A stretch of DNA of 36,794 bases from an uncultured Porphyromonadaceae bacterium (GTDB taxonomy: Bacteria > Bacteroidota > Bacteroidia > Bacteroidales > Muribaculaceae), in contig CAMWSN010000005.1 of assembly GCA_947176925.1 (NCBI GenBank), positions 1-36,794 of the forward strand, in the 5' to 3' direction. The notes under the pieces are model-generated. The model ran no database searches. It was given only the letters and a program-made list of their open reading frames with translations, and had not been told where the DNA came from. The position numbers and the translations under genes were made by a program. Positions 11,464-28,214 of the stretch are shown piece by piece (position 1 is the stretch's first letter; each line of letters starts with the position of its first letter).

Positions 11464-11465
11464 GG

Positions 11466-11539
11466 TCGGGGTGACAGGATTCGAACCTGCGACCTCCTGC
11501 TCCCAAAGCAGGCGCGCTACCGGGCTGCGCAACACCCCG
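11466..11539 (-). tRNA. tRNA-Pro (anticodon TGG)
   Basis: A 74-nt cloverleaf on the minus strand. The acceptor CGGGGTG pairs with CACCCCG and the discriminator is A. The D stem is GCGC/GCGC. The anticodon stem CCTGC/GCAGG holds TTTGGGA with anticodon TGG. The T arm is GCAGG-TTCGAAT-CCTGT. CCA is not encoded. No terminator follows; a protein start codon lies 2 nt beyond the 3' end. Confidence 0.97.
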
Positions 11540-11552
11540 CGAAAATTCGCCG

Positions 11553-11560
11553 CAAAGTTA
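11553..11560 (-). promoter_or_regulatory. -7 element upstream of tRNA-Pro and its operon
   Basis: TAACTTTG on the minus strand, ending 13 nt before the tRNA 5' end. No good TTTG is seen at the -33 position, where the sequence is a T run. It is the only recognisable promoter for tRNA-Pro and the five genes behind it. Confidence 0.55.
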
Positions 11561-11599
11561 CGAAAAAAATCGTAAAACATAAAAAAAATATACACTTCT

Positions 11600-11631
11600 T
11601 TTCTACTTTATTGAAAAATTTCGTAACTTTG
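11600..11631 (+). promoter_or_regulatory. Promoter of modular secreted protein A
   Basis: TTTC (11600-11603), 20 nt, then TAACTTTG (11624-11631). The -7 element is perfect and the -33 has one mismatch. The predicted start near 11636 gives a leader of about 29 nt. That leader contains TTAATTTATCACATT (11643-11657), also present in the leader of the next paralogue. Confidence 0.6.
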
Positions 11632-11664: not shown

Positions 11665-13623
11665 ATGAAAAAAGTTTTACTTTTGTTGTCAGTAATGGCG
11701 ATGGCAGCCACTTCGGCCAGCGCTTATGACTCATTCACAGCCGGCACCGATGAGGCTCCCAATTATTACCTCATCCGCACTGAACGTGGTAATCCCTTCC
11801 TTTCTTATAGTGCGGACGGTGTGACCAATAGCGCGGATGGATACGTTTCTCATCTTACTCGTCTGGCTAATGCTACCGAGGCTTCACTTTGGGAAGTAAC
11901 TCCCGGCAGTGCAGCCGGTACCGTAGTTATCAAAAACTACGTTGGTGACTTTTACCTGATGAATCTGACAACAACTCCGGCCGATGTTACTGAAACCGGT
12001 ACTGATATCTATGTTCAGCAACTCACTGATAAGGCTTTCTCTATTGGCGTGGAAACGAGCGGAGCAAACTTCCTCGATGCTAATAACTGGAATAATAACT
12101 GCGGCAACTGGTATGCTAATGATGGTGGTACCACTTGGTATGCCACTATGGTTGACCTGACCAACGCTGATGATGTCCTTTCTGCAATTCAAGCCGCTCA
12201 ATACGGCTCAGATTGTGAGTCTGCTCAAAAACACGCTATTGCTCAGCTTGAGGCTTATGCCGGAATTGAAGTCGTAGCCGATATCATCGCTGAAGGTGTT
12301 GAAGCTATTAAAGCCGTAAAGGTATCACCCGATTTTCAGACAGATATTGATGCTGCGCTCCAAGATACATGGACCAAAGCAGCCGCTATGCTTGGAACCG
12401 GACTTAATGGCAAGACTTTCGGTATTCTGAATCTGCGCCGTGAGGGGGCAAATAACGCCTATATTTCCGTGAATACAACGACGAATAATTACCCCGGTAC
12501 AATCAACATGAGTGCCGATAATGCCATTTTTGAATTCCAGTCGGTTGAAACCGGAGGCTATCATATATATAATAAGGAGACCTCTACCTATATGTCAGTG
12601 GGCGGTGCTATAACCGACTCTTTTACTCCGACCCAGAATGAATCTGAAGCTGCGGCTGTTTTCCCCTTCTTAAACTCTTTCGAAGGCTATTACGGCATTG
12701 TATTTGGTCTTAAGGCTGAACGTTCACAATGGGAAGGTACCTTTAACTATGACTCCAGTACTAGTAATGGAGCTCTCGTCGTATGGTATGCTGATACTGA
12801 CGGTGCCGGTTCAATCTGGAATCTCATTGAATTAAATGAGGAAGCCGTTGTTAAGGAAATTACGGCACCTTACGCAAGCCGTTTGACCGAATATGCAACC
12901 AACGTAGAGCCGGCTGCCGACATTTTCAATGCCGGAATCACCAAGCTCGGCGAGCTGAAGCGTTCCGCTACTATTGTAGAAGAGGCTGCTGCTATCGAGA
13001 CCGAGACTATCGCTTCGGCCAATGAATTCCTCAAGACCGGTCTTAATGAGAAGAGCGTACAGCTCCGTTCGCTCCGCAACGGCTATATTGTTCCCGATGA
13101 AACTCCTACTGCTTGGACTATAAGCGACGGCGTTACTGAAGAAACTTACGGTTATTCGATCTCTGCTACGGCTTCTGATGCTGCCAATTATGACTTCATT
13201 TCCGGCGAAGATGGTGGTTACACCGTTTATAGCCCCGTAACCGAGCGCTACTTCGGTCCCTATAAGCAGAATGGTGGCAACAAGTCCATTCCTCAGGTTG
13301 ACGAAGCTGACGCTACCTTGGTTTACCCCGAAATCAAACAATCAGGTGATTACTATGGCGTTGCTTTCGCTCTCCCGGCTGATGAGAACTTTTCCGCCGG
13401 TTCATGGGGCCTTAACACTAACGCAACAGGACTCCACTCATATTATACTACCGACATCGGTTCTATCTTCGCCATCAAGGTTGTGGGCAATGCTACTGAA
13501 ATCGCTGAAATCAGTGCTTCTGCTCCCGCCGCTCAAGGCATCTATGACCTCAGCGGTCGCCGCCTCAGCGCTCCCGTTCGTGGCATCAATATCATCAACG
13601 GTCGCAAAGTCCTTGTGAAGTAA
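11665..13623 (+). CDS. Modular secreted protein A (lectin-like modules, sorting-type tail)
   Basis: I do not recognise this 652-aa protein as a named family. A type I signal peptide (MKKVLLLLSVMAMAATSASA) is followed by a beta-rich module (about 21-170: YYLIRTERG, SLWEVTPGSAAGT, YLMN). Two linker-module units follow. The helical linkers contain EYATNVEPAADIFNAGI-like sequence. The modules run from GKTFGILNLRR (249) to GSIWNLIEL (382) and from EKSVQLRSLRN (about 462) to GSIFAIKV (599). Each holds a GGYxxY and a YYGxxF motif. Residues 625-652 form the IYDLSGRRLS...INIINGRKVLVK tail, resembling a type IX-type sorting tail. The repeats are reminiscent of beta-trefoil lectins, so glycan binding is a reasonable guess, not shown. 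First of three tandem paralogues before a mucinase PUL. Confidence 0.8.
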   Translation: MKKVLLLLSVMAMAATSASAYDSFTAGTDEAPNYYLIRTERGNPFLSYSADGVTNSADGYVSHLTRLANATEASLWEVTPGSAAGTVVIKNYVGDFYLMNLTTTPADVTETGTDIYVQQLTDKAFSIGVETSGANFLDANNWNNNCGNWYANDGGTTWYATMVDLTNADDVLSAIQAAQYGSDCESAQKHAIAQLEAYAGIEVVADIIAEGVEAIKAVKVSPDFQTDIDAALQDTWTKAAAMLGTGLNGKTFGILNLRREGANNAYISVNTTTNNYPGTINMSADNAIFEFQSVETGGYHIYNKETSTYMSVGGAITDSFTPTQNESEAAAVFPFLNSFEGYYGIVFGLKAERSQWEGTFNYDSSTSNGALVVWYADTDGAGSIWNLIELNEEAVVKEITAPYASRLTEYATNVEPAADIFNAGITKLGELKRSATIVEEAAAIETETIASANEFLKTGLNEKSVQLRSLRNGYIVPDETPTAWTISDGVTEETYGYSISATASDAANYDFISGEDGGYTVYSPVTERYFGPYKQNGGNKSIPQVDEADATLVYPEIKQSGDYYGVAFALPADENFSAGSWGLNTNATGLHSYYTTDIGSIFAIKVVGNATEIAEISASAPAAQGIYDLSGRRLSAPVRGINIINGRKVLVK

Positions 13624-13651
13624 ACATTATTAATAGTTTTATTATGACATC

Positions 13652-13687
13652 AATCCCCGGCAGCCCTTGGGCCGCCGGGGATTTTGA
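13652..13687 (+). terminator. Terminator after modular protein A
   Basis: AATCCCCGGC (13652-13661) pairs with GCCGGGGATT (13674-13683). A nested GCCC-TT-GGGC extends the stem, and TTTT follows. It separates genes A and B into two transcription units. Confidence 0.85.
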
Positions 13688-13695
13688 TATAAAAT

Positions 13696-13726
13696 TTTGA
13701 TTTTTAAATTAAAATGTGTAACTTTG
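13696..13726 (+). promoter_or_regulatory. Promoter of modular secreted protein B
   Basis: A full consensus: TTTG (13696-13699), 19 nt, TAACTTTG (13719-13726). The predicted start is near 13731, giving a leader of about 42 nt that opens with the same TTAATTTATCACATT (13732-13746) seen upstream of gene A. Confidence 0.75.
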
Positions 13727-13772
13727 CGGCGTTAATTTATCACATTCTTACTATCTTAAATCCAAATTTAAC

Positions 13773-16256
13773 ATGAAGAAATCACTGTTGATTCTTTCAG
13801 TGGTGGCCTTGGCGGCGACGTCTGCCCGGGCCTACGATACTCTCGAGCCCGGCACCGCCGATGCTCCGAATTACTACACCATAACGGCTAATCGAGGTGA
13901 CAATAAAATCTTGACTTATAGTTATGATGGCGTGACCGCCGGTTCCGGCAAAACCCATCTCTATCGTCAGACCGAGGTTATCCCCGAAGCAATCTGGGCC
14001 GTTACTCCCGGTTCGGTTGATGGTACTATCAGAATTCAGAACTTAGTGTCCGGCCAGTATCTGATGGATTATCAAAATGGTTTTGAAGTTCCTTTTGCAT
14101 TCACCGGTGCGTATGCCAACACTACATCTACTCCGGCAGATGTCTATTATAAAGCGGATCCATCGGTAGCCGACACTTATGTTCTTTCATTGAGGAATAC
14201 TAATGGTTCCGCAGTTGTTGATGGCGCATGGAATTATTTTGGTCTTGATGCTTCGGGTGGTCAGGCTAATATTCTTTGTGGTAACTGGTACGGAAGCGGC
14301 GGCGGCCTTGCCTGGGGCTTTACTAAGGTTGATATGGATAATGACTATCCGGGTTATCTGGAACAAATCAAGCCGGAATTTGATAAGTATCTTACCGTGT
14401 TGATGGATTATGCCAAGTATGTCGCTCCGTGTGCCGAAGGTTTAGGCACGACTATCAAAGAGATTATGGCGATTACAGATCCCACTCAGGCTTCAACCAT
14501 TAAAGAAAAATATGATGCAGCCGTTACGGCGGCAAATGAAACCCTTCAGAATGGTTTGCTGGACCACAGATATGCTATGGTTAACCTGCGCCGCTTTAAG
14601 AATAATAATGCTGCCGGATATTTCCTTGGAGTGACCGCTAACGGAGCTTATGCTCCCACTACCTCGATGTATGACAGTTATGCGTGGTTCTCGTTTGCAA
14701 AGTTAGAAAGCGGTGAAACAACTCCTTATTATATCCATAATATCGGTCCGAATGACTATATGGGTGATTCTACCGGGCCTATTGCACCTCATCCTAATTC
14801 TGTGTTTACGATCTACCCGGCCCTTCATTCCTTTGGTGGATATAATGGTGTAGCGTTTACAAGAAATGCGGACCACACCGGCAACGCGCTGAATATGGAT
14901 GAATCTGCCTCTAATCCGGTAGTGTTCTATAACGTTGAAGATACCGGCTCGATCTGGGCGCTTGTTGATGTTACTGAACTTGAGGATTACATGGGACTTC
15001 TGACCCAGTATGCCGCCCATGTTGCTCCTGCTGCTGAATATTTTGAGGCAGGTACTGAGTTGCTGAAGGAAACCCGCAGTATCGAGTCCCCGATTTTGCA
15101 TACACGCAGTGCTATTACTGATGCGATTACTCAAGCGAACTCTTTACTCCAGACCGGTCTTGAAGGTAAAGTCTTTGCTATGTATTATCTCAGAGGAAAT
15201 GGTTATTTGGCGCCTAAAGCTGATGAATCAGGTTACTCAACAGGATCTGCCAATTATAATTCTGCTTCTACTTGGTTTAAATTTGTTGCTGATCCGGATC
15301 ATGCCGGTGGATATTTCATACAGGATTATGCTGACGATAAGTATATCTCTGCATCTTTGGCTCCCTCCGAATCAGATAAACAAGTGGTATATCCTTTTGT
15401 AAATGCAGGTGGAGGAAACTATGGCGTTTCATTCTCTTTTAACTCTAATCACGCAGGAGATGGTTTGAATTCAAACGGTACTTTGAGCTCATGGGGTGTC
15501 TCTGATGCCGGTTCTATCTGGGGCTTGATTGATGTTGAGGATGGTCTTAAGTCGGCTGCTATCAGTGATCTTGAGAAGTATGTCGAGACGGTTGCTCCTG
15601 CTGCTAATATTTTCAATAAGGGCATTGAAGATATTGATGCTTTGGAATTTACGGATGACTTTGTTTCTGAAATTCAGGCTGTGTCTGGCAAAGCTATTTC
15701 CGACGCTAATGATTTGCTGAAAACGGCTCTTGCTGAAAAGAGTGTTTCTATACGTAGCTTGCGTAACGGATATATTTATGTGTCCGATGATGCATTTAAA
15801 TCTTCTTCTGAGCAGACCGATCTTGCCAATTATGACTTCGCGGCTGCTGATGGAGGTGGATATACTATCTATAGCCCTGTAGCCGATAAGTATATGGGTC
15901 CGGTTGCAAGTGGAAACATGACGCTTGTGGAAGATAAGGCTAATGCTGTTATTGTATACCCTGTGGTTTTCCATTTTGGGGATAATTATGGTGTGGCTTT
16001 CCCTCTCTCTGATTCAGATGCTGCCGGAACGGATGGCTTGAACGCTAATTCTGATGCTAATGCTCTGCATAAGTGGCAGATCGACGATCTTGGTTCGATC
16101 TTCGCTATCCAGGTGATGGGTCCCTCAACGGAAATCAGCGAGGTTACGGCTGACGATGTTCGCGCCCAGGGTATTTATGACCTCAGTGGTCGCAAACTTA
16201 TCGCTCCCGTTCGCGGTATCAATATCATCAATGGCCGCAAGGTGCTTGTAAAGTAA
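13773..16256 (+). CDS. Modular secreted protein B (largest paralogue, three linker-module units)
   Basis: An 827-aa paralogue of its two neighbours with the same plan. It has a signal peptide (MKKSLLILSVVALAATSARA), then an N-terminal module with YYTITANRG, AIWAVTPGSVDGT and QYLMD. Three helical-linker plus beta-module units follow, one more than in A or C. Linkers carry DYAKYVAPCAEG, QYAAHVAPAAEYF and KYVETVAPAANIF. Module ends carry GSIWALVDV, GSIWGLIDV and GSIFAIQVMG. The tail at 800-827 (IYDLSGRKLIAPVRG...) is nearly identical to that of A. By eye it uses more A/T-ending codons than gene C and the PUL. It is flanked by its own promoter and terminator. Glycan or mucin binding is inferred from repeat style and context only. 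Confidence 0.8.
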   Translation: MKKSLLILSVVALAATSARAYDTLEPGTADAPNYYTITANRGDNKILTYSYDGVTAGSGKTHLYRQTEVIPEAIWAVTPGSVDGTIRIQNLVSGQYLMDYQNGFEVPFAFTGAYANTTSTPADVYYKADPSVADTYVLSLRNTNGSAVVDGAWNYFGLDASGGQANILCGNWYGSGGGLAWGFTKVDMDNDYPGYLEQIKPEFDKYLTVLMDYAKYVAPCAEGLGTTIKEIMAITDPTQASTIKEKYDAAVTAANETLQNGLLDHRYAMVNLRRFKNNNAAGYFLGVTANGAYAPTTSMYDSYAWFSFAKLESGETTPYYIHNIGPNDYMGDSTGPIAPHPNSVFTIYPALHSFGGYNGVAFTRNADHTGNALNMDESASNPVVFYNVEDTGSIWALVDVTELEDYMGLLTQYAAHVAPAAEYFEAGTELLKETRSIESPILHTRSAITDAITQANSLLQTGLEGKVFAMYYLRGNGYLAPKADESGYSTGSANYNSASTWFKFVADPDHAGGYFIQDYADDKYISASLAPSESDKQVVYPFVNAGGGNYGVSFSFNSNHAGDGLNSNGTLSSWGVSDAGSIWGLIDVEDGLKSAAISDLEKYVETVAPAANIFNKGIEDIDALEFTDDFVSEIQAVSGKAISDANDLLKTALAEKSVSIRSLRNGYIYVSDDAFKSSSEQTDLANYDFAAADGGGYTIYSPVADKYMGPVASGNMTLVEDKANAVIVYPVVFHFGDNYGVAFPLSDSDAAGTDGLNANSDANALHKWQIDDLGSIFAIQVMGPSTEISEVTADDVRAQGIYDLSGRKLIAPVRGINIINGRKVLVK

Positions 16257-16281
16257 ATTAAGACTTTTTCCCCGATATCCA

Positions 16282-16317
16282 ATCCCCGGTTGCTTTGCGG
16301 CTTCCGGGGATCTTTTT
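16282..16317 (+). terminator. Terminator after modular protein B
   Basis: ATCCCCGG (16282-16289) pairs with CCGGGGAT (16304-16311) and is followed by CTTTTT. The stem sequence is almost the same as in the terminator after gene A, which suggests gene and terminator were duplicated together. Confidence 0.85.
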
Positions 16318-16391
16318 GTGGGGTGGCGGATCCCATTTGGCTTTGGCATGGTTTTTGCTTGGTAACCTTTTGTAGTTTTTTTGTGGAAAAT

Positions 16392-16422
16392 TTTGCAGTC
16401 TCAGAATTTTTTAGTAACTTTG
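16392..16422 (+). promoter_or_regulatory. Promoter of modular protein C and probably the PUL
   Basis: TTTG (16392-16395), 19 nt, TAACTTTG (16415-16422). The predicted start near 16427 gives a leader of about 51 nt. No other TAnnTTTG site was found between here and susC, so this may drive gene C together with the SusC-SusD-lipoprotein-M60 genes. Confidence 0.7.
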
Positions 16423-16477
16423 CAATTAGAAAAATTTTAACATTAGATTACATTTCACCTTAACTCACCCCTTTCTT

Positions 16478-18577
16478 ATGAAGAAATCATTACTGATTCT
16501 TTCGGTGTTGGGCCTCGCCGCCACTCAGGCGATGGCTGTTGACAGGCTTACCGTCGGCACAGCCGATGCGCCGAGCTATTACCTGATTTATGCCAATCGT
16601 GGCACGGCTTATCTGACCTATAATCCCGAAGGTCAGGATATTGAAATCATGGGCAAGGATGAGGCCGGCAATGACGTTGTCAAGCAGGCTTTCAATACCA
16701 AGCTGGTTCGTTCAAACTCGATTTCTACTGCTGCTGTTTGGGCTATTAGTGAAGGTACCGACGAAGGTTCACTGGTTATTAAGTCGGCCGAGCATGATGC
16801 TTATCTGACCGGATTCTTTAATCGCGACAATGATGAGACTTCTTATGAGCTCGATGCTTATGCCAACACGGTTGACGAAGCTACCGATGTTTATTATAAG
16901 GAGTTTGTCAATGGTACCGGCGATTATTGCTACAGCTTCAGCCTCTTCTCAGCTCAAGGTTATGAAAGTGTTGCAAATGAAGATGGCGAAGGTACTCACA
17001 ATATCTTCTACACTCTTGACGCCAGCAACCAGGGTGACTTCTGTACTAACTGGTATCCCGCAGGCGACGGCGGTAATATCTGGTGGCTCGTTAAGGTCCC
17101 TGTTGAGCCGGGCGTGTCAATCGTAGATGCTCTTTGCTCTATGGCTACTGAGACTGCCATTACCAACCTCGAGAACTTCAAGGCTAACGTTCCCGCAAGC
17201 ATTGTGCCCGTTCTCGAAACCGGTATCAGTCAGATTCAGGGTCTTCCCGCCGATGCTGACTATGATGCGTTCTCTGAAAAGGTTAACGAGCTCTATACTT
17301 CAACCATCGCTGCTTGTAATGCCGGTCTGATGAACGTGTTTGGCGGCAAGACCTGGGCATTTAAGAACCTCCGTCGCGCTGACAAAAACATCGCAACCGG
17401 TGCTTATCCCGCAGCCAGCACCGTGAACACCCTGTTTATTCCCTCAACTACCGTGGCTGACCCCTTCACTTCATTCACGGCTACAGTTGACGACGAAGGC
17501 GGCTACACCTTCTATAATGAAGCTTCGAAGACCTACATTGGTACCGTGGTTGAAGGTGAAAAGAACGTTTGCGCTCCTGTGACCTCAGCTGATAATGCTC
17601 AGACTTTCTACGCTTGCCTGAAGGTCGGCGGCGGTTATTATGGCATCGGCCTCTGTGTTTCCGACGAATATGAAGGCCAGGGCCTGAATATGGATACTTC
17701 AGTTGGTAACGGCATGGTATATTACAATGTTAACGACGCCGGTTCAATCTGGCAGATCATTGAAGTAAGCCAGGAAGCCATGAAGGCAGACATCGTTGAA
17801 ATGGTTGAAAACGCTCTTTCTCCCTATATTCCCAACGTTACTTGCGTAGCTCCGATTCTTACCAAGGCTATCGAAGACGTTAAGGCTCTTCCTTATAGTG
17901 CAGAGATGCTGACCAAGGCTAACGCTCTTAGAGATGATGCCATCGCTGACGCCAACGAATATCTCGCAACCCAGCTCAACGGCAAGGTCTTCGCGCTGAA
18001 GTATCTCCGCGGCAACAATTACGTAGCTGTAGCTCCCGGCGTGACTGAAGATGGCGAAGAAGGCGATCTGAACTATCAGCATGTTGAAAATGCCGCTAAC
18101 CCTGACGCTCAGTTCACTTTCATTGCTATCGAAGACAATGATGAAGGTGGCTACTATGTCTACAATGCTGCTACCGACACTTACTTCGGCCCGCAGCAGG
18201 CTGAGGAAGTTGACGCCAACGGTAATCTTCTTGACACTCTGACCATCGTTACCGATGCTGAAGATGCTCAGGATCTCTATCCCACCCTCTACACCTTCGG
18301 CGGCTACTATGGTATCGCCTTGCCGTTCATCCCCGGTGCAGACGCTACCACCCCGTCAATCAACATGAACGGCAATCCCGGTCTCCATGCATACATGAAC
18401 GGTGACGCAGGTTCTATCTGGGGTCTCCTTGATCCGGAAGAAACCTCAATCGAGGAAATCGGCGTTGACGCCAGCAAGCCCGCAGTCGTAGGTATCTATG
18501 ATCTGAGTGGCCGCCGCCTGAGCAAGCCGGTTAAGGGTATCAACATCATCAACGGCAAGAAGGTGCTTGTGAAATGA
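16478..18577 (+). CDS. Modular secreted protein C (paralogue adjoining susC)
   Basis: A 699-aa paralogue of A and B. It has a signal peptide (MKKSLLILSVLGLAATQAMA), then an N-terminal module with YYLIYANRG, AVWAISEGTDEGS and AYLTG. Two helical-linker plus module units follow (GKTWAFKNLRR to GSIWQIIEV; GKVFALKYLRG to GSIWGLLDP). The tail at 672-699 is IYDLSGRRLSKPVKG... ending KKVLVK. The central modules include GGYTFYNEASKTYIG and GGYYVYNAATDTYFGP. Codon choice looks like that of the following SusC/SusD genes (AAC, GAC, TTC, CTC favoured), unlike B. It lies 137 nt upstream of susC with no clear promoter between, so it may be the first gene of the PUL transcript. Function unknown; surface glycan capture is a hypothesis. 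Confidence 0.8.
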   Translation: MKKSLLILSVLGLAATQAMAVDRLTVGTADAPSYYLIYANRGTAYLTYNPEGQDIEIMGKDEAGNDVVKQAFNTKLVRSNSISTAAVWAISEGTDEGSLVIKSAEHDAYLTGFFNRDNDETSYELDAYANTVDEATDVYYKEFVNGTGDYCYSFSLFSAQGYESVANEDGEGTHNIFYTLDASNQGDFCTNWYPAGDGGNIWWLVKVPVEPGVSIVDALCSMATETAITNLENFKANVPASIVPVLETGISQIQGLPADADYDAFSEKVNELYTSTIAACNAGLMNVFGGKTWAFKNLRRADKNIATGAYPAASTVNTLFIPSTTVADPFTSFTATVDDEGGYTFYNEASKTYIGTVVEGEKNVCAPVTSADNAQTFYACLKVGGGYYGIGLCVSDEYEGQGLNMDTSVGNGMVYYNVNDAGSIWQIIEVSQEAMKADIVEMVENALSPYIPNVTCVAPILTKAIEDVKALPYSAEMLTKANALRDDAIADANEYLATQLNGKVFALKYLRGNNYVAVAPGVTEDGEEGDLNYQHVENAANPDAQFTFIAIEDNDEGGYYVYNAATDTYFGPQQAEEVDANGNLLDTLTIVTDAEDAQDLYPTLYTFGGYYGIALPFIPGADATTPSINMNGNPGLHAYMNGDAGSIWGLLDPEETSIEEIGVDASKPAVVGIYDLSGRRLSKPVKGINIINGKKVLVK

Positions 18578-18622: not shown

Positions 18623-18670
18623 ACCAGTGAGACTGAGCTTTATTCCTTAGATAAAGTCGGCCTCACTGGT
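18623..18670 (+). promoter_or_regulatory. Long RNA hairpin between gene C and susC
   Basis: ACCAGTGAG (18623-18631) pairs perfectly with CTCACTGGT (18662-18670). An inner CTTTAT/ATAAAG stem caps it with a 7-nt loop. No U run follows, so it is not a standard intrinsic terminator. It may attenuate, protect or process the transcript between gene C and susC. The structure is seen; the role is inferred. Confidence 0.55.
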
Positions 18671-18714: not shown

Positions 18715-21700
18715 ATGAGAAATCGTAATTTAAATTGGCGGAAAGGCATCTTCTTTGCCTCGGCCCTCGCGTTGATGGCCCCCGTCAGTGTTTGGGCACT
18801 CCCGGAGCCCGTTAGCGCCTCTGCCGAGCAGGCAGCCGCTAAGCGCACAATCACCGGTGTAGTAGTCGATGCTCAAGACGGCGAACCCCTGCCGGGTGCA
18901 ACCGTTTCGGTTGTTGGCGATAAATCGGCCATCACCGCAACAGACATCGACGGTAACTTCTCTCTTAGTATTCCTTCCGGCAAGAAGACGGTGCTTTTGG
19001 TTAGCTATGTAGGCTATAACGAAATGCGCGTGCCGGTAGAAGACCTTGGTTTTGTCAAGGTGGAAATGAAAGGCGCTGACAACACACTGGATGAAGTCGT
19101 AGTTGTCGGTGCAGGTACTCAAAAACGTGTGTCCGTGACCGGTGCCATCACTTCAGTGAAGGGCGATGAGCTCCGCCTCCCCGCCGGTAACCTGACCACG
19201 GCCCTCGCCGGTAAAATCGCCGGCGTTGTTTCCTCGACCCGTTCCGGTGAGCCCGGTAGCTCCGCTGAATTCTATATCCGCGGTATCGGTACTTTCGGCG
19301 GCCGTCAGACCCCGCTTATCCTCTTGGACGACGTGGAAATCTCCGTCTCCGACCTTGATTATATCCCCGCTGAAAACATTGAGTCTTTCTCAATCCTCAA
19401 GGACGCATCCGCAACGGCTATCTACGGTTCACGCGGTGCTAACGGTGTGATGATTGTTAAAACCAAGGGCGGTGATTACAACACTCAGACCCGCATTGGC
19501 GTCAGCTTCGAAAACTCCTTTAACTTCAAGGGCGATTTCCCTGACTTCCTTGACGGTCCTGCCTTCATGGAACTCTACAACAAGGCCCGTGTGGCTCGCG
19601 GTAACGCTCCTTATTATACGGAGACCGCTATCGAACGCACCCGTGAAGGCCTCAATCCCTACCTCTATCCTAACGTAGACTGGGAAGATATGCTCTTCAA
19701 GAAGATGGCCATGCGTCAGCGTGCCAACGTCAACGTCAGCGGTGGTGGCTCCAAGGTGCGCTACTACATGTCGCTCGACTTCCAGCATGAAGACGGCCTT
19801 CTGAACACTTCGAAGAACTACTCATGGAACAACAACCTCAACATCTACAACTACACGTTCCAGAACAACATCGCCTATAAGCTCACCCCGACCACCACGA
19901 TCGAGATGAACATGAACGCTCAGATCCGTCAGAGCTCCGGTCCGAACGTCAACGACGATAACGTAGTCGTTCCCACCAAGGGCATGTTTGCTTACATCCT
20001 GACCACTAACCCCGTAGTCTTCCCCGCTTACTATCCCGGATTTGAAGACGACGAGTTTATCCGTTATGGTGCCGTCCGCCGCGCCGAAGTCATGCAGCAG
20101 AACCCTTACGCCCTGCTCAACTCCGGTTACGGTCAGACCAACGAAAACACCATCAACACCGTAATCAAGATCAAGCAAGACCTTGATTTCGTTACCAAGG
20201 GCTTGAAGTTCGACGCCTGGTTTAACTTCAAGAACTGGAGCAGCAATGGCTTCACCCGCCGCGTGACTCCTTATTACTATACCACCAACGGCGACCGCGA
20301 TAGCTATGACCTCGTAGACGAGAACGGTTCACCGCTGATGACCGACGACATGTATCAGATCCTTCAGGAAGGTACTGTCTACCTGAGCGAACGTGGCCCG
20401 CTGCGTAACTCTGACTCCACCTTCGAGCTGCAGGCTAACTTCAACTGGAACCGCAAGTTCGGTCTCCATGACGTCAGCGCTATGCTTCTCTATCGTCAGC
20501 GTCAGTATCGCTCGGCAATCCTCCCCGAACGTAACCAGGGCCTTTCATTCCGCGCAACCTATGACTATGCTCACCGCTACCTCGTAGAGTTCAACGCCGG
20601 TTATAACGGTACCGAACGTCTCGCCAAGAAGGACCGCTTCGGTTTCTTCCCCGCTGCATCAATCGGCTGGGTAGTCAGCAACGAAAAATTCTTCGAACCC
20701 GTTTCAAACGTGATCACCAACCTTAAGCTCCGTGCTTCTTACGGTCTCGTAGGTTCTGATGACCTCGCTTCTCCCGGCGGTTCACACTTCCTCTACCTGA
20801 ACAAGATTGAAGACAATACCATCAATAAGATCAGCTACACCACCGGTGATATGGCCGACAACGCATGGTATTCCGGTTCGGGTCCGAGCCTCAGCTACTA
20901 CGCAATGACCGGTATCGGCTGGGAAAAATCACGTAAGGCTGACGTAGGTATCGACCTTACCCTCTGGGGCAAACTCGTCCTCACCGCCGACTACTTCCAC
21001 GAACAACGCTATGACATCTTCCTCCAGCGCGAATCCTGGCCTCAGTCTCTCGCTTACCACATTGCCAAGCCTTATGACAACAAGGGTAAGATGCAGAACC
21101 AAGGTTTCGAAGTGTCTGCCGAATACAACCAGCGCATAAACAACGACTGGAACATCAGCTTCCGCGGTAACGTCTCCTACTCTGAAAACAAAATCATTGA
21201 CTGGGACGACCCCGAATATGAATACACTTGGAAAAACAACTATCGTACCAACAAGCCTTATCCCGGCAAGAGCAACGTCTACGGCTATATCGCCGAAGGT
21301 CTCTTCAAGAGCGAAGAGGAAATTGCCAATAGCCCCATCCAGCAGGTAGGTTCTTCAACCGTTCGCGTCGGTGACATCAAGTATCGCGATATCAACGGCG
21401 ACGGCCGCATCACTTCAGACGATATCACGATGATCAGCGAATACGGTACGACCCCCCGCCTGCAGTATGGCTTCGGCGCTACTGTCAACTGGCGCAAATT
21501 TGACCTCGGCTTCCAGTTCGTCGGTCAAGGCAAGCGCTCCATCATGGCCAACGGCGTAGATCCCTTCCAGGAAGGCGGCAACATGACTGCCCGCAACGCC
21601 CTCACCTGGGTTGCCGAAAACTACTTCGACCCCGAGCTGGGCAACTTCGACGCCAAGTATCCCCGCCTGGGTACTACCCAGACCGAAGTTTCAAACAACA

Positions 21701-21912
21701 CGGTTAACTCTACATGGTGGCTCCGCAGCGGTTCATTCCTGCGCCTGAAGAACATCGAACTCGGCTGGTCATTCCCCTATGGCCGCGTTTATGTTGCCGG
21801 CACGAACCTCCTGCGCTTCAGCAACTTCAAACTTTGGGATCCCGAACTTGAAGCATGGAACAGCTATCCTATCTCTAAGGCCGTCACCATCGGTGTTCAG
21901 CTCTCCATCTAA
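18715..21912 (+). CDS. SusC/RagA-type TonB-dependent outer-membrane transporter
   Basis: This is the outer-membrane importer of the PUL, which pulls oligosaccharides or glycopeptides through the outer membrane using TonB energy while SusD acts as the lid. The 1065-aa protein has a signal peptide (to about residue 28) and a carboxypeptidase-regulatory-like domain (TITGVVVDAQDGEPLPGATVSV, about 44-115). Next come a TonB-box-like LDEVVVVG and a plug with the SusC/RagA signature KDASATAIYGSRGANG (from 229). The large barrel ends in VTIGVQLSI. There is no N-terminal STN domain, so it is not built for anti-sigma signalling. It is followed by susD after 36 nt. Confidence 0.97.
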   Translation: MRNRNLNWRKGIFFASALALMAPVSVWALPEPVSASAEQAAAKRTITGVVVDAQDGEPLPGATVSVVGDKSAITATDIDGNFSLSIPSGKKTVLLVSYVGYNEMRVPVEDLGFVKVEMKGADNTLDEVVVVGAGTQKRVSVTGAITSVKGDELRLPAGNLTTALAGKIAGVVSSTRSGEPGSSAEFYIRGIGTFGGRQTPLILLDDVEISVSDLDYIPAENIESFSILKDASATAIYGSRGANGVMIVKTKGGDYNTQTRIGVSFENSFNFKGDFPDFLDGPAFMELYNKARVARGNAPYYTETAIERTREGLNPYLYPNVDWEDMLFKKMAMRQRANVNVSGGGSKVRYYMSLDFQHEDGLLNTSKNYSWNNNLNIYNYTFQNNIAYKLTPTTTIEMNMNAQIRQSSGPNVNDDNVVVPTKGMFAYILTTNPVVFPAYYPGFEDDEFIRYGAVRRAEVMQQNPYALLNSGYGQTNENTINTVIKIKQDLDFVTKGLKFDAWFNFKNWSSNGFTRRVTPYYYTTNGDRDSYDLVDENGSPLMTDDMYQILQEGTVYLSERGPLRNSDSTFELQANFNWNRKFGLHDVSAMLLYRQRQYRSAILPERNQGLSFRATYDYAHRYLVEFNAGYNGTERLAKKDRFGFFPAASIGWVVSNEKFFEPVSNVITNLKLRASYGLVGSDDLASPGGSHFLYLNKIEDNTINKISYTTGDMADNAWYSGSGPSLSYYAMTGIGWEKSRKADVGIDLTLWGKLVLTADYFHEQRYDIFLQRESWPQSLAYHIAKPYDNKGKMQNQGFEVSAEYNQRINNDWNISFRGNVSYSENKIIDWDDPEYEYTWKNNYRTNKPYPGKSNVYGYIAEGLFKSEEEIANSPIQQVGSSTVRVGDIKYRDINGDGRITSDDITMISEYGTTPRLQYGFGATVNWRKFDLGFQFVGQGKRSIMANGVDPFQEGGNMTARNALTWVAENYFDPELGNFDAKYPRLGTTQTEVSNNTVNSTWWLRSGSFLRLKNIELGWSFPYGRVYVAGTNLLRFSNFKLWDPELEAWNSYPISKAVTIGVQLSI

Positions 21913-21948: not shown

Positions 21949-23967
21949 ATGAAATTAAATAATTTTCTGAAATTTGCGGTTGTGGCAGCCGGAACGCTCG
22001 TTGGCGTTTCCTCCTGCGATTATCTTGACGTTGTGCCCCCCGAACAGGCCAACCTCGAGGACGCCATGAAGACTCACACCGCTGCCCTCGGCTTCCTTTA
22101 TTCCTGCTATGCCGGCACACAGGACGCCTCAGCCACTCCGACGGAGTATCAGGACGTTTTCTCCGCCTCACAGGACGAATGGGTATTCCCCAACGAACAG
22201 GAAGCATCTTATCCGGCAATCTTCGCCGCCAATAAGAACACTCAGTCAACTGACCTGAGCAATATCAACTGGCTTTGGGGCACGATGTATCAGTACATCG
22301 GTCAGTGCCTGCTCTTTGAAGAACAGCTCAAGACCAACGGCCGCCAGAATGAGGTTTGCCAGAATGACCAGGAAGAACGCGAATGGCTTGCTGAAAGCCG
22401 CTTCCTCCGCGCTTATTACCACTACATTCTTCTGCGCACCTATGGTCCTATTCCTTTGACCACCGAGCGTATCCCGATGAATTCTCCCGATTCAGATTTC
22501 CCCGGCCGCTCTCACTTCGACTACTGCGTGCGTTACATCGCCAGCGAACTTGATGCCGCCTACGAGGATCTGCCCGCTACCCGCGAATCCATCAACTATG
22601 GCCGCGCAACCAAGCCCATCGCTAAGGCTATCAAGGCTCGCCTGCTCCTGCTCGCCGCCTCTGACCTCTACAACGGCTCTTTCCCCTATCCCGAGTGGAA
22701 GAATACCAAGTATGAAACTCCCGGATATGGCAAGGAACTCGTTTCCAGAACTTATGACCGTCAGAAATGGGTCGACGCTTACAAGGCTCTTGAAGAAGCC
22801 ATCGAAGAAGCTGAAGGCAACGGCCGCAGCCTCATGACCGACTATGAGCCCGAAGCAAACGTGCCCCTGTCAAGCATGAACTGGATTCCCGTTGACTTCG
22901 AGGACGACACCGAACGTGACGAATTCCTCTCAAAGGTGATGCTCAACCGTTACATCCACACCACCTCCGAGAGCCAGAACCCCGAAATCATCTGGTCTCA
23001 GCGCCGCACTCACGGCCTGCTTGAGAACGCCCGTATGCCGCTTAAGATTATCAAGAATAAGAACGGCCAGTGGTATGCTTCAAGCTGGTCAGTGGTTAAC
23101 CCTACGCTGAACACCGTGTTCAACTTCTACTGTAAGGACGGTCTTCTGCCTGCCGACAGCCACTCTGAAATCGACTTCCCCGCCAAGAGCGACTGGTATA
23201 AGCGCGTAGCCGTAGCCGCTACCGGCCATGAAGATATGATCAACCTCGTCCGCAACCGCGAACCTCGCTTCTATGCCTGGATTGCCTTCGACGGCGGTAA
23301 CTATCTCAGCCGCATCAAGAACGGCGAACCCCTGACTCTTGACTTCAAGTCAAACACCGCTCAAGGTCATGACCCCGCCCGCGAACCTAAGAACCTTGCT
23401 TCTACCGGTTTCCTGGCTATGAAGCACATCGCTCCGGTCACTATGATTTCTAACGAGTTGGCTCTGACCAAGGGTACTGACCACCCCGTGGTACTTATCC
23501 GTCTGACCGAACTTTACCTCGGTATCGCTGAAGCAGCCGCCGAGCTGGCCAAGACTGAACCTGAATATCAGGAAATCGCCCTGAGCTACCTCAACGCTAT
23601 CCGCGAACGTGCCGGCGTGCCCGAAATTGATGCCTCAATGATTGGCCGCGTGGTCAACAACCCCGCCACCAACTCTCCCAAGACGATGACCCTCACCGAA
23701 TGGGTTCGTCAGGAACGCTTCATCGAACTCTGGGACGAAGGTACTCGCTACTTCGATATCCGCCGTTGGGTTGCAGGTCCTGAATACCTCGGCAACGGTG
23801 TCCGCATGGGTCTCACCGGCGACGTTGAAAACCCCACCCACGAGCAGTTCAATACCCCCAAGGTCATCAACCCGACCTACTCCTTCGGCGCTCGCCAGTA
23901 TCTCTATCCGGTCTTCATCAACGAAGTTTACAAGAACCCGCAGATGGTTCAGGCTCCCGGATTCTAA
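21949..23967 (+). CDS. SusD/RagB-family surface nutrient-binding lipoprotein
   Basis: This is the surface lid that pairs with SusC and binds the imported glycan. The 672-aa protein has a lipoprotein signal with the modified cysteine at 23 (GVSSC). It carries the SusD helical framework: WLAESRFLRAYYHYILLRTYGPIPL, then RATKPIAKAIKARLLLLAA, and late VRQERFIELWDEGTRYFDIRRW, which is diagnostic of RagB/SusD. It is at the long end for the family. It lies 36 nt behind susC and 45 nt before the next lipoprotein gene, with no promoter or terminator between. Confidence 0.97.
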   Translation: MKLNNFLKFAVVAAGTLVGVSSCDYLDVVPPEQANLEDAMKTHTAALGFLYSCYAGTQDASATPTEYQDVFSASQDEWVFPNEQEASYPAIFAANKNTQSTDLSNINWLWGTMYQYIGQCLLFEEQLKTNGRQNEVCQNDQEEREWLAESRFLRAYYHYILLRTYGPIPLTTERIPMNSPDSDFPGRSHFDYCVRYIASELDAAYEDLPATRESINYGRATKPIAKAIKARLLLLAASDLYNGSFPYPEWKNTKYETPGYGKELVSRTYDRQKWVDAYKALEEAIEEAEGNGRSLMTDYEPEANVPLSSMNWIPVDFEDDTERDEFLSKVMLNRYIHTTSESQNPEIIWSQRRTHGLLENARMPLKIIKNKNGQWYASSWSVVNPTLNTVFNFYCKDGLLPADSHSEIDFPAKSDWYKRVAVAATGHEDMINLVRNREPRFYAWIAFDGGNYLSRIKNGEPLTLDFKSNTAQGHDPAREPKNLASTGFLAMKHIAPVTMISNELALTKGTDHPVVLIRLTELYLGIAEAAAELAKTEPEYQEIALSYLNAIRERAGVPEIDASMIGRVVNNPATNSPKTMTLTEWVRQERFIELWDEGTRYFDIRRWVAGPEYLGNGVRMGLTGDVENPTHEQFNTPKVINPTYSFGARQYLYPVFINEVYKNPQMVQAPGF

Positions 23968-24012: not shown

Positions 24013-25530
24013 ATGAAAAAATCAATTATACTTTCGGGTCTGCTTGGCGCACTGGTGCTCACTACCGGCTGTGAGAAGTATGACATCTATCCCGAAGCTT
24101 TTGACGGAGTCTTCACCATCCGCAACGCCGGCACCCGTGACCTCGTAGTCTATGCTACCGACGACGTGGCCGAAGTACCTTTCGTTGTCATGAAGGGCGG
24201 CTATAAGCCTGAAATCGACTCCAAGGCTACTCTCAAGGTCATGAACGATGAGGAATTTGCAGCCTATCAGGAATCAACCGGTCTGGTAACATACGTTCCC
24301 TTAAGCCCGGAGTGTTACTCTTTCTCGCCCAATCTTGACGAGAATATCGACGCTATGGACTATGTATTCTCCGGCAAGGATGATCGTAGCCGCTCTACCA
24401 ATCTCTACGTCCGTCCTAACGTGATTCGTCAGTGGCTGAGCGATAATTCCGAACTCCTGGGTCTCGATACCGACGCTCCCAAGACTCCGATTATTCCCGT
24501 ACTCCTTGTCAGCGAAACCGACACCGTCGATGCTTACAGCAATGTATCCATCATCAAGGTGAACCTCCGTGTTCCTCAGCTTGAAGTTGACGTCAATGAG
24601 TTCAATTCGCGTTCAATCAATGCATCTACTCTTGACCCCACAGGTGACAACTTCTATTCTCCGGAAATGAACTTCAGCATCCCCTGTGCCAACCCCTGGG
24701 GCTTCACCGTCAAGGTGAACGCAGATCGTGCTGCCGTTCAGAAGTATAACATGGTTAACGGAACCTCTTACCTCGTTCTTCCTAACGATGCTTACGAGCT
24801 CCAGACCGATTACCACTTCGAACCCGGAGTCACCTCTATGCCGCTCAACCTCAAGATTGACGTCAACAAGCTTCAGATTAACCGCAACTACTGCTTCGCC
24901 GTCACTATCGACAAGAAGAACCCCATCACGTGGGACAACGAAAACTATAATCCCGGTGAAGCCCTTGGCGTCGAAGCCGGCAAGACCTATTATTTCAGCG
25001 TTCGCGTTATCGACGTGGTTATCCTTGAAAAGATCGAGCTCTCGACTTCTAACGTGACTACTAACGATGCCGAACCCTCGGAAGGTAACCTGGCGTTCCT
25101 CTTCGACGGCATTATCGGCGGCACAAGCAACTTCTTCCACTCCGGATGGTCCGTAGCCAACGAGCGTGAAAGCGTCTACGCTTCTTACCTCGAAATCGAG
25201 CTTCCCACTCCGATGTCAATGTTCCGCTTCATGCTTGCTAACCGTGAATCAGCCGCTGCTGCCGGTTATGTAAAGAAGGTTCACCTCTTCGGTACAAATG
25301 ATAAGAACAACTGGCCGACCACTCCGTTTGCCGTCATCGACGATATGAACCAGCAGCTCAACGGCGCGGCCGTATCTGCCGAGTTTGGTGACGACGAAAA
25401 TCCCTATCGCGCCGATCAGCCTTACAAGTATCTGCGCTTCTGCGTGATGGAATCCGGAGGCGGTTCACTTGGTACGACAAGCACCGCGGTCTTCTGGCAC
25501 GCTTCTGAACTTGAACTCTACGGTTTCTAA
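24013..25530 (+). CDS. Surface glycan-binding lipoprotein (DUF1735 plus discoidin-like)
   Basis: A 505-aa lipoprotein (GALVLTTGC, lipid cysteine at 20). The N-terminal two thirds look like two DUF1735-type beta-sandwiches: the first around FTIRNAGTRDLVVYATDD, the second around VDVNEFNSRSINASTLDPTG. The C-terminal 160 residues resemble an F5/8 type C (discoidin) module: LFDGIIGGTSNFFHSGWS, YLEIELPTPMSMFRFML, VKKVHLFGTNDKNNW, and closing HASELELYGF. DUF1735/discoidin proteins at this PUL position usually act as accessory surface glycan-binding proteins. No catalytic motif is visible. The 45-nt and 32-nt gaps to its neighbours fit a single operon. Confidence 0.85.
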   Translation: MKKSIILSGLLGALVLTTGCEKYDIYPEAFDGVFTIRNAGTRDLVVYATDDVAEVPFVVMKGGYKPEIDSKATLKVMNDEEFAAYQESTGLVTYVPLSPECYSFSPNLDENIDAMDYVFSGKDDRSRSTNLYVRPNVIRQWLSDNSELLGLDTDAPKTPIIPVLLVSETDTVDAYSNVSIIKVNLRVPQLEVDVNEFNSRSINASTLDPTGDNFYSPEMNFSIPCANPWGFTVKVNADRAAVQKYNMVNGTSYLVLPNDAYELQTDYHFEPGVTSMPLNLKIDVNKLQINRNYCFAVTIDKKNPITWDNENYNPGEALGVEAGKTYYFSVRVIDVVILEKIELSTSNVTTNDAEPSEGNLAFLFDGIIGGTSNFFHSGWSVANERESVYASYLEIELPTPMSMFRFMLANRESAAAAGYVKKVHLFGTNDKNNWPTTPFAVIDDMNQQLNGAAVSAEFGDDENPYRADQPYKYLRFCVMESGGGSLGTTSTAVFWHASELELYGF

Positions 25531-25562: not shown

Positions 25563-28214
25563 ATGAATAAGAAACTCAAAAAAATGCTTGCACTCGCAGC
25601 CCTCAGCCTTGGCCTCATGGCCGGGCTGACGGCCTGTGAAGGCAAGGAAGAAGAACCCAACGGCGGAGGTAATCCCTCGGTCGGATTCTCCATAGACGAC
25701 CAGTATCTCAACCATACCATCAACAAGGAAAAGAAGACCATCGAAATTCCCGTCAATGTGCCTGCTTCCACTTCAAAATGGTTTGTTGAGACTGATGCCA
25801 ACTGGATTTTTGCCAGCAAGGAAAATGCCGTCAACGGTATCGGCAAGGTAATCCTTCGCGTGGACGAAAATAATTCCGGCGCCACCCGTGACGCTATCGT
25901 AACCGTTTCCTCCACCGCGCGCACCATTACCGTCAACGTAAGGCAATATGCCGAGAGCGGCCTGATCGTGGCCGGAGACTTCCCCGTGAAGCCAATCTCA
26001 GCCACTGCTTCTTCCCAGCAGAGCAATGGCCACATCAGCCTCAGCTATGACGATGATGTCAATACGATTTATCATTCCTCATGGAGCGGCACCACTTTCC
26101 CCGTGGAGCTCAAATATAACTTCGCCGGACGCGAACAGATCGACTATATCGAGTATGTTCCCCGTCAGGGTGGCGGCAACGGCAGCTTTGAAGAATTTGA
26201 GTTATATGTGGCTGAAGATGCTGCCAAATCTAACTTTGAAAAGATTGGCGACTTTAACTTCCATGGATCTTCTGCTCCCAGTCAGGTAACCATTCCCGGA
26301 GGAAAGAAGCCCACCTGCGTGAAGTTCAGCGTCAAGAGCGGTGTCGGCAATTTTGCCAGTTGCGCCGAAATGCGCTTCTTCCGCTATAACACTGAATCTT
26401 CGCTTGACCGCGAACTCCTTGAGGTATTCACTGACCTGACTTGCTCCGAACTCAAGCCCGGAGTGACCTCCGAGCAGATTCAGCAACTTGACCCCGCATT
26501 CCAGCTCATTGCCGAAGCCCTGATGAACGGGACCTATGACCCCCTGGAGAAATCTTTCCGTATCCACGAATATGAAGCTTACTCCAACCCCGTAGAATGG
26601 GCTGAACCGCTGATGACCAAGATTTACTCAAACTGGGATAACCCGATGGGTATCGCCGTGAAGAAAGGTGAAAAAGTCCTGATTCTTGTTGGTGAAACTC
26701 ATGGTAATTCGCTCTCAGTCCAGATTCTTGGCGAAGAAGGCTCCGGCAGCGAACTTCGTCCCCAGAAGCAGGGTACTTTCCATAGTCTCCGTCCCGGTGT
26801 CAACCAGATTGAGGCTGACCAGGAAGGCCAGCTCTTCCTGATGTACACGGCCGTGCCCTCCGCCGCGACCTCCAAGCCTATCAAGGTGCATATCCCCTTA
26901 GGTCAGGGCAGCTTTGCCGGTTACTGGCGTTTGAGCGAGCATAAGACCGACGAGAAATTCACTGAAATCGTTGGCCGTGGCACGCATAAGTATTTCTGCA
27001 TCGTCGGAAACCGCATGCTCCTCTACTTCAATCGTCAGAAACTTCCCCGAAAGATTGTTGACCCCATCACTCAATGGGACAACATCATCACCTGGCAACA
27101 GAACTTCATGGGCATTGAAGACGTACGTCCGTCACTTTGGAACAACCATATCGCCGGCGTCTCCAGTACCGTTTCGTCTGACTATATGTGGGCTTCGGAC
27201 TATACCATGTGTTTCCACGAATCTACAATCGAGAAAATCATGGGTCTGGACCGTCTTAACGCAAATGCTGATAATGCCTGGGGACCGGCTCACGAGATGG
27301 GCCATGTGAACCAGAAGGCTATCAACTGGGCGTCTACCACTGAAAGCTCCAATAACCTCTTCTCAAACTACGTGCTCTATCGCTTTGGCCGATACAACAG
27401 CCGCGGCAGGGGCCTCTACTATCGCTTCAAGGCAGTCTATGAACAGGGTCACTCCTGGGCATCGATGCTCAATACCGTAAGTACCGGTCCTGAGATTCCC
27501 AAAGTAGCCGACGGACAATGTTTTGACGGAACCGGCGGTGAAGATACCGGTATCCACATGCGTCTGAACTGGCAGCTTTGGAATTACTATCACCGCGTGC
27601 TCAAGGATGAGAAGTTCTTCGGCCGCGTCTTCCAGAATATGCGTAAGCTCGGCATGACCGAAACGGAAAACTGCGGCAAAAAGCAACTTGAATTTGCCGT
27701 GGCTTGTTCGGAGGCCGCCGGTGAAGACCTAACCGACTTCTTTGAAGCCTGGGGCTTCTTCAAGGCTCATAACTCCGTTGTCAGCCAGTATGGCACCTAT
27801 GACTATAAGGTTACGCAGGCTATGATTGAAAACGCCAAGATGCGGATGTCCAAGTATCCCAAGCCCAAACATGCGTTGGAATACATTGAAGATCGCAGCG
27901 TCAAGATGGGTGCTAAGCCCGGTGACTATTCGTTTGACATGGTAGGTGATCTCGGCTATTACACCACCTATGAACAGAACCTGAAGGTTTCATCAAATGC
28001 CAAGGCAACTGTCAGCGGTCGCTCCGTGACCACTACCAACTGCGAAAATGCCGTGGCTATTGAAGTCCGCAAGCGTTTGGGTGAAAGCTATGGAGAAATC
28101 CGCTATGCTTCAAACTACGTTCAGTTCACTGTGCCCACCAAGGTTGATATCAACGGATGTAACGTCTATGCCGTGCAGGCCGATGGTACTCGAATCTTCC
28201 TGGCACAAATGTAA
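25563..28214 (+). CDS. M60-family (enhancin-like) mucin peptidase lipoprotein, BACON-discoidin-M60
   Basis: An 883-aa surface lipoprotein (LMAGLTAC, lipid cysteine at 25). The domains in order are as follows. A BACON-like module (about 40-130) has WFVETDANWIFASKEN. An F5/8 type C module (about 135-280) has LSYDDDVNTIYHSSWSG. An M60-type peptidase domain occupies roughly 340-700. The zinc motif HEMGH is at 577-581, with candidate third ligand Glu594 (TTESSNN). The same order is known from the mucin O-glycopeptidase BT4244 of Bacteroides thetaiotaomicron, which cuts beside O-glycosylated Ser/Thr. The inferred role is cleavage of mucin-type glycoproteins at the cell surface. It is the last gene before a strong terminator. 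Confidence 0.92.
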   Translation: MNKKLKKMLALAALSLGLMAGLTACEGKEEEPNGGGNPSVGFSIDDQYLNHTINKEKKTIEIPVNVPASTSKWFVETDANWIFASKENAVNGIGKVILRVDENNSGATRDAIVTVSSTARTITVNVRQYAESGLIVAGDFPVKPISATASSQQSNGHISLSYDDDVNTIYHSSWSGTTFPVELKYNFAGREQIDYIEYVPRQGGGNGSFEEFELYVAEDAAKSNFEKIGDFNFHGSSAPSQVTIPGGKKPTCVKFSVKSGVGNFASCAEMRFFRYNTESSLDRELLEVFTDLTCSELKPGVTSEQIQQLDPAFQLIAEALMNGTYDPLEKSFRIHEYEAYSNPVEWAEPLMTKIYSNWDNPMGIAVKKGEKVLILVGETHGNSLSVQILGEEGSGSELRPQKQGTFHSLRPGVNQIEADQEGQLFLMYTAVPSAATSKPIKVHIPLGQGSFAGYWRLSEHKTDEKFTEIVGRGTHKYFCIVGNRMLLYFNRQKLPRKIVDPITQWDNIITWQQNFMGIEDVRPSLWNNHIAGVSSTVSSDYMWASDYTMCFHESTIEKIMGLDRLNANADNAWGPAHEMGHVNQKAINWASTTESSNNLFSNYVLYRFGRYNSRGRGLYYRFKAVYEQGHSWASMLNTVSTGPEIPKVADGQCFDGTGGEDTGIHMRLNWQLWNYYHRVLKDEKFFGRVFQNMRKLGMTETENCGKKQLEFAVACSEAAGEDLTDFFEAWGFFKAHNSVVSQYGTYDYKVTQAMIENAKMRMSKYPKPKHALEYIEDRSVKMGAKPGDYSFDMVGDLGYYTTYEQNLKVSSNAKATVSGRSVTTTNCENAVAIEVRKRLGESYGEIRYASNYVQFTVPTKVDINGCNVYAVQADGTRIFLAQM

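What the first reader, a model, noticed from the sequence alone, without database searches (positions are those of the whole stretch)
11665..18577. Three tandem paralogous secreted modular proteins of unrecognised family, beside a mucinase PUL
A, B and C share one plan: signal peptide, one beta-rich module, then two, three and two units of helical linker plus beta-rich module, and a common tail. Across ten modules the strand motifs recur: a GKxFAxxxLRxxxxYL-like start, a GGYxxYxxxxxxYxGx core, YYGxxFxL, and a GSIWxLIxL end. Linkers repeat YxxxVxPAAxIFxxGI. The style resembles beta-trefoil lectins strung on helical spacers. Lying directly upstream of SusC/SusD, an M60 mucin peptidase and a GH84, they could form a secreted or surface-displayed mucin-binding array of graded length. 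I know of no described family with exactly this plan.
Basis: partly seen in the sequence, partly recalled or inferred. Interest (0 to 1): 0.78.

Follow-up and report, generated by a model that had tools for sequence, protein, structure and literature searches.

The report
Strings of lectin-like modules beside mucinase
Three neighbouring genes of a gut bacterium encode secreted proteins built as strings of lectin-like (beta-trefoil) modules; in every sampled genome of this genus that holds this mucin-degradation gene cluster, one to three such genes sit directly before its import pump, so they probably hold mucus sugars at or near the cell surface, though binding is untested.

Summary
A (11665-13623), B (13773-16256) and C (16478-18577) are paralogous secreted proteins: signal peptide, one divergent N-terminal module, two/three/two units of helical linker plus module, and a shared 45-residue tail. 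AlphaFold2 gives C at pLDDT 81.5 and one module alone at 94.4; all three modules of C are beta-trefoils (VIA Z about 15-16). By sequence they stay below Pfam's RicinB_lectin_2 cut-off and lack both ricin QxW and CBM92 WExF motifs. Of 11 sampled genomes of the genus, all six that hold the SusC-SusD-SGBP-M60 cluster carry one to three of these genes immediately upstream of SusC. Four of the five without the cluster lack them; the fifth has a five-module version elsewhere. Each gene has its own Bacteroidota-type promoter element, SusC has none, and a hairpin separates C from SusC. The genome encodes a type IX secretion system, and the tail recurs at C-termini genome-wide, but it does not match the T9SS tail model. 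Best reading: genus-restricted, multivalent, surface or released glycan-binding proteins serving a mucin cluster. Fold and linkage are shown; ligand, location and export route are inferred. New variant of a known kind.

The parts
11665..13623 (+). Protein A, 652 aa: signal peptide (no lipobox Cys), N-trefoil, 2 linker-trefoil units, tail
13773..16256 (+). Protein B, 827 aa: signal peptide, N-trefoil, 3 linker-trefoil units, tail
16478..18577 (+). Protein C, 699 aa: signal peptide, N-trefoil, 2 linker-trefoil units, tail; AF2 model pLDDT 81.5
16541..17098 (+). C N-terminal trefoil module (residues 22-207)
   Evidence: VIA Z 16.1 to 4izx, rmsd 2.2, 133 aligned
17327..17767 (+). C inner module 1 (residues 284-430), modelled alone at pLDDT 94.4, twelve strands
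17963..18436 (+). C inner module 2 (residues 496-653), trefoil
   Evidence: VIA Z about 15 over model residues 503-654
17120..17338 (+). C helical linker 1 (three helices, residues 215-287)
   Evidence: DSSP
17771..17971 (+). C helical linker 2 (three helices, residues 432-498)
   Evidence: DSSP
18437..18574 (+). C-terminal tail ...GIYDLSGRRLSKPVKGINIINGKKVLVK, low-confidence in model, recurs at C-termini across the genome
12391..12834 (+). A inner module 1
13030..13485 (+). A inner module 2
14544..14972 (+). B inner module 1
15147..15536 (+). B inner module 2
15717..16118 (+). B inner module 3
11624..11631 (+). TAnnTTTG promoter element before A
   Evidence: pattern match only
13719..13726 (+). 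TAnnTTTG promoter element before B; a GC-rich hairpin followed by a T-rich stretch precedes it (end of A's transcript)
16415..16422 (+). TAnnTTTG promoter element before C; a GC-rich hairpin and T run precede it
18623..18670 (+). Hairpin between C and SusC without a T run; hairpins also in G080, G061 and G123 at this spot
18715..21912 (+). SusC-type TonB-dependent transporter
   Evidence: Pfam
21949..23967 (+). SusD-type lipoprotein
   Evidence: Pfam; lipobox Cys
24013..25530 (+). BT3987-like (DUF1735) + F5/8 type C surface glycan-binding lipoprotein
25563..28214 (+). M60 peptidase with BACON and F5/8 type C domains; HEMGH zinc motif at residue 577
28321..30516 (+). GH84 with GH20b and F5/8 type C domains

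Best explanation
A, B and C are secreted, multivalent glycan-binding proteins, functioning like extra surface glycan-binding proteins of a mucin O-glycoprotein utilisation locus. After Sec export they cross the outer membrane, probably by the type IX system using the C-terminal tail, and are held on the surface or released. Three or four beta-trefoil modules, spaced by three-helix bundles, bind mucin glycans with avidity and keep the glycoprotein near the M60 peptidase, GH84 and SusCD pump. Steps shown: trefoil modules on helical spacers (predicted structure), paralogy, Sec signal peptide without lipobox, fixed position upstream of SusC, presence of a T9SS in the genome. Steps inferred: glycan binding, mucin as ligand, tail as T9SS signal, surface location, higher expression of the module genes than of SusC.
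For: Trefoil fold: single module pLDDT 94.4 with 12 strands; VIA Z 16.1-16.6, rmsd 2.5-2.9 over 129-138 residues to sugar-bound lectins, though FGFs score 15; all three modules of C match. Weak sequence kinship to RicinB_lectin_2 (best E 0.00019). Linkage: six of six genus genomes with the PUL have 1-3 copies right before SusC. Two genomes with a lone M60 relative (53% identical) but no SusCD have none. The core order SusC-SusD-DUF1735/CBM32-M60 equals the B. theta mucin locus BT4247-4244 (PMC11992087). Remote relatives of the module form the C-terminus of a GH20 and of a sialidase in the same genome, the usual place of a carbohydrate-binding module. T9SS: PorU 837 bits (cut-off 420) and SprA 2629 bits; the tail ends the protein in 14 of 15 other loci examined; the last 22 residues of a T9SS signal can suffice for export (PMC10202324). 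Modules cluster by position, first against last, across genomes with one change over 20 rows, and C is under purifying selection (dN/dS 0.15), so positions have kept roles.
Against: No binding residue could be assigned: no QxW or WExF in A, B or C. Trefoils also bind proteins or inhibit proteases, and FGF and fascin score nearly as well as lectins. The tail is not recognised by TIGR04183. G149 keeps a five-module homologue with no PUL beside it near a contig end, and a two-module relative in another genus sits among housekeeping genes. The GH20 and sialidase modules are only remote relatives.
Confidence: 0.6

Rival explanations
1. The trefoils bind protein, not sugar: for example they capture the mucin peptide or host proteins, or inhibit host or rival proteases near the cell.
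For: Trefoils of protease inhibitors (cocaprin 7znx, Z 15.6) and FGFs score about as high as lectins; the profile's best PDB hit by sequence is fascin, E 0.007; no lectin signature residues.
Against: The setting is a glycan/glycoprotein utilisation locus and remote module relatives sit on glycosidases.
Confidence: 0.2
2. The proteins are mainly structural or protective, an abundant surface coat (S-layer-like, decoy for phage or antibody), and only share a promoter region with the PUL.
For: Own promoter elements and terminator-like hairpins for A, B and C suggest expression separate from SusC; copy and module number vary; B-type copies are only about 40% identical between genomes whose SusC is 94% identical.
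Against: Strict co-occurrence with this PUL, and no promoter element seen between the last copy and SusC in five of six genomes examined; C is well conserved, dN/dS 0.15.
Confidence: 0.12
3. They are periplasmic or soluble helpers (the tail is not a sorting signal), handling imported glycopeptides inside the envelope.
For: The tail does not match TIGR04183 or Pfam's Por_Secre_tail; signal peptides are of the plain Sec type.
Against: The tail recurs at C-termini genome-wide in a T9SS-bearing genus, and G149's homologue ends in a different tail that weakly matches TIGR04183 (E 0.005, below cut-off).
Confidence: 0.1

Closest known systems
BT4240-50 mucin O-glycoprotein PUL of Bacteroides thetaiotaomicron (PMC11992087)
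   Same: SusC, SusD, DUF1735+CBM32 glycan-binding lipoprotein and M60 peptidase in the same order.
   Different: The B. theta locus is described with ECF sigma/anti-sigma genes and a GH2/GH109 operon, not with trefoil-string genes; here GH84 follows and one to three trefoil-string genes precede SusC.
Ricin B-type / CBM13 beta-trefoil lectins, Pfam RicinB_lectin_2 (PF14200)
   Same: Fold, size, weak sequence similarity.
   Different: Below the gathering score; QxW motif absent; strung on three-helix spacers.
CBM92 (beta-trefoil, trivalent; PMC11039641)
   Same: Beta-trefoil carbohydrate-binding module, also found in Bacteroidota.
   Different: The WExF motif of each subdomain is absent; CBM92 modules are appended to enzymes rather than strung on helical spacers.
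Surface glycan-binding proteins (SGBP, SusE/F positional class)
   Same: Encoded beside SusCD and expected to hold glycan near the pump.
   Different: Not lipoproteins, upstream of SusC rather than downstream of SusD, own promoter elements, presumed T9SS export.
T9SS type A sorting domain (TIGR04183)
   Same: Conserved IYDL-GR ... GINIINGKKVLVK ending in a T9SS-bearing genome.
   Different: Only about 45 residues and no model match.

Membership tests
Beta-trefoil fold | Twelve strands in three subdomains superposing on solved trefoils | tested here: met
   Z 15-16.6, rmsd 2.2-2.9 over most of the module, three modules of C.
RicinB_lectin_2 (PF14200) | Score above Pfam gathering cut-off 25.6 bits | tested here: not met
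   A 20.0, B 13.9, C 21.1 bits.
Ricin B / CBM13 lectins | QxW signature in subdomains | tested here: not met
   No QxW in A, B or C.
CBM92 | WExF at the end of each subdomain | tested here: not met
   No WExF in A, B or C; definition from PMC11039641.
Fascin domain (PF06268) | Pfam match of A, B or C | tested here: not met
   Not listed for A, B, C at E 10; 3 of 24 modules match at best E 0.0026 on their own.
PUL surface glycan-binding protein | Encoded adjacent to a SusC/SusD pair | tested here: met
   Six of six genomes.
PUL surface glycan-binding protein | Lipoprotein signal peptide | tested here: not met
   No cysteine at the end of the signal peptides of A, B and C, whereas SusD, BT3987-like and M60 have one.
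PUL surface glycan-binding protein | Binds the target glycan | not testable with these tools
   Needs binding assays.
T9SS cargo, type A | C-terminal TIGR04183 domain | tested here: not met
   No match of A, B, C or their tails.
T9SS cargo, type A | Genome encodes the T9SS | tested here: met
   PorU and SprA above cut-off in all 11 genomes.
M60 mucin PUL (BT4244-47 type) | SusC, SusD, DUF1735/CBM32 protein and M60 in order | tested here: met

The most novel reading that the evidence does not exclude
A genus-specific class of T9SS-exported, multivalent trefoil-string proteins acts as the first, over-expressed component of a mucin PUL: each copy has its own promoter, a hairpin throttles read-through from the last copy into SusC, and position-specific modules make a surface array that hands mucin to the lipoprotein SusD/SGBP/M60 machinery.
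Probability: 0.3. Interest if true: 0.6.

Novelty: new variant of a known kind. Interest (0 to 1): 0.45.

Why it matters
PUL surface binding is thought of as the work of SusD and SusE/F-type lipoproteins. A linked family that is not lipidated, is probably exported by another machine and carries several trefoil modules per chain would add a second mode of glycan capture for mucin foraging in gut Bacteroidales, and would give testable new lectins. The family is also missed by all Pfam and NCBIfam models at their cut-offs.

Tried and rejected
Viral contigs scan with C found nothing. The linker as a FIVAR domain: one weak hit in B (E 0.93), none among 21 linkers, so not claimed. A search with the other-genus relative returned almost only tail matches; it shows how widespread such tails are, not the modules. 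Ambiguous bases in G080's B gene looked like hypervariability but are Ns spread over the left half of the locus, densest at the end of B, so read as assembly quality. Fast divergence of B between G000 and G080 cannot be separated from non-orthology, and dS is saturated (2.2).

Full report
Observation. Self-comparison shows seven inner modules that align pairwise, with E down to 1e-36, and an HMM built only from other genomes finds 2, 3 and 2 of them at E 1e-22 to 8e-43, while 300 shuffled sequences give nothing better than 0.46. The three N-terminal modules are a divergent branch: profile comparison to the inner ones gives 77% probability, E 2e-5.

Fold. AlphaFold2 on C with nine family rows: pLDDT 81.5; modules alternate with three-helix bundles; the signal peptide and part of the tail are uncertain. 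Inner module 1 alone with 24 rows: pLDDT 94.4, pTM 0.89, twelve strands. VIA aligns all three modules of C to beta-trefoils: 22-207 to 4izx Z 16.1, 286-430 to 4ion Z 15.7, 503-654 to 3q7x Z 15.3. The single module has Z 16.1-16.6 to sugar-bound ricin-type lectins, but FGF and designed trefoils reach 15, so the fold is settled (as a confident prediction) and the function is not. A and B were not modelled separately; they follow by homology. Pfam RicinB_lectin_2 is the best family but below its cut-off. QxW and WExF are absent.

Neighbourhood. SusC, SusD, BT3987-like with F5/8 type C, M60 with BACON and F5/8 type C, and GH84 follow; the M60 keeps HEMGH. The order matches the mucin-induced BT4247-4244 operon of B. 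theta (PMC11992087). Upstream lie two related proteins with no firm Pfam family, a PCMD protein and a tRNA-Pro.

Distribution. In 11 genomes of the genus, the PUL (SusC 79% or more identical, SusD, BT3987-like, M60 62% or more) is in six, and in each a family gene lies directly upstream of SusC: 3 copies in the window genome, 2 in G080 and G096, at least 1 in G061 and G123 (contig edges), 1 single-unit copy in G147. G020 and G110 have an M60 relative at 53% without SusCD and without the family. G041 and G136 have neither. G149 lacks the M60 orthologue and has a 1249-residue homologue with five modules, Ig-like repeats (judged by eye) and another tail near a contig end. Six of six against one of five gives a hypergeometric probability of 7/462 = 0.015 (worked by hand), ignoring relatedness. 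Beyond the genus, the inner-module profile found nothing in 392 other genomes of the order at 1e-6, and the N-module/linker/module profile found relatives in one other genus, of which G036's is not in a PUL.

Related modules. At lower similarity the module profile reaches the C-terminus of a sialidase (C37, E 2e-10) in the window's genome, and protein B matches the C-terminal part of a GH20 hexosaminidase (C41, E 7e-8, tail included). Both end with a similar kind of tail.

Export. None of A, B, C has a lipobox. The genus has PorU and SprA. The tail recurs at about twenty other places in the genome; in 14 of 15 examined the protein ends with it. It does not match TIGR04183. In HBP35 the last 22 residues suffice for export (PMC10202324), so a short tail is possible as a signal; this is inference.

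Expression. TAnnTTTG elements begin 41, 54 and 63 bases before the start codons of A, B and C, and 52-62 bases before family genes in G080, G096 and G147; none lies between C and SusC. Hairpins occur between the last copy and SusC in the window genome, G080, G061 and G123 (whole intergenic fold -20 to -34 kcal/mol). The window holds 30 TAnnTTTG matches on both strands, so each alone is weak; the conserved spacing is the evidence.

Evolution. First-position and last-position modules separate on the tree with a single change over 20 rows, support 75/79, so not firmly. B's middle module groups with first-position modules, and G149's modules 1/3 and 2/4 pair up, consistent with duplication of one unit and of a two-unit block. 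Between the window genome and G080, C has dN/dS 0.15, SusC 0.07, SusD 0.12, BT3987-like 0.16.

Verdict. Function is inferred from fold and linkage only.

Noticed in passing
G000:C41 (L054:3425-10358): A GH20 hexosaminidase ending in a linker, a module-like region and a tail lies close to the PorU sortase gene (one gene between).
   Followed up: partly
G000:C3:4949-8101: Second PorU-like protein, 382 bits, just under the family cut-off; similar second copies in nine other genomes of the genus, one of them (G136) above the cut-off.
   Followed up: no
window 10714-11595 (-): The listed GTG start runs through a tRNA-Pro gene (11463-11539); the protein more likely starts at the ATG just after it (MSRFISRL).
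   Followed up: partly
window 9839-11595 (-): Two tandem related proteins without a firm Pfam family (about 26% identical to each other's relatives), conserved at 85-88% in G080.
   Followed up: no
L082:10149-13898 (-): Five-module homologue with two Ig-like repeats and a different C-terminal tail, no SusC beside it on the contig.
   Followed up: partly
L047:8545-9165: G080 carries a repeat-rich stretch between its B-like and C genes (repeated DPPPCGRKIW-type reading), probably non-coding.
   Followed up: no
PDB 4kca, residues 630-680: An endo-arabinanase in the PDB carries a similar tail (E 0.0003).
   Followed up: no
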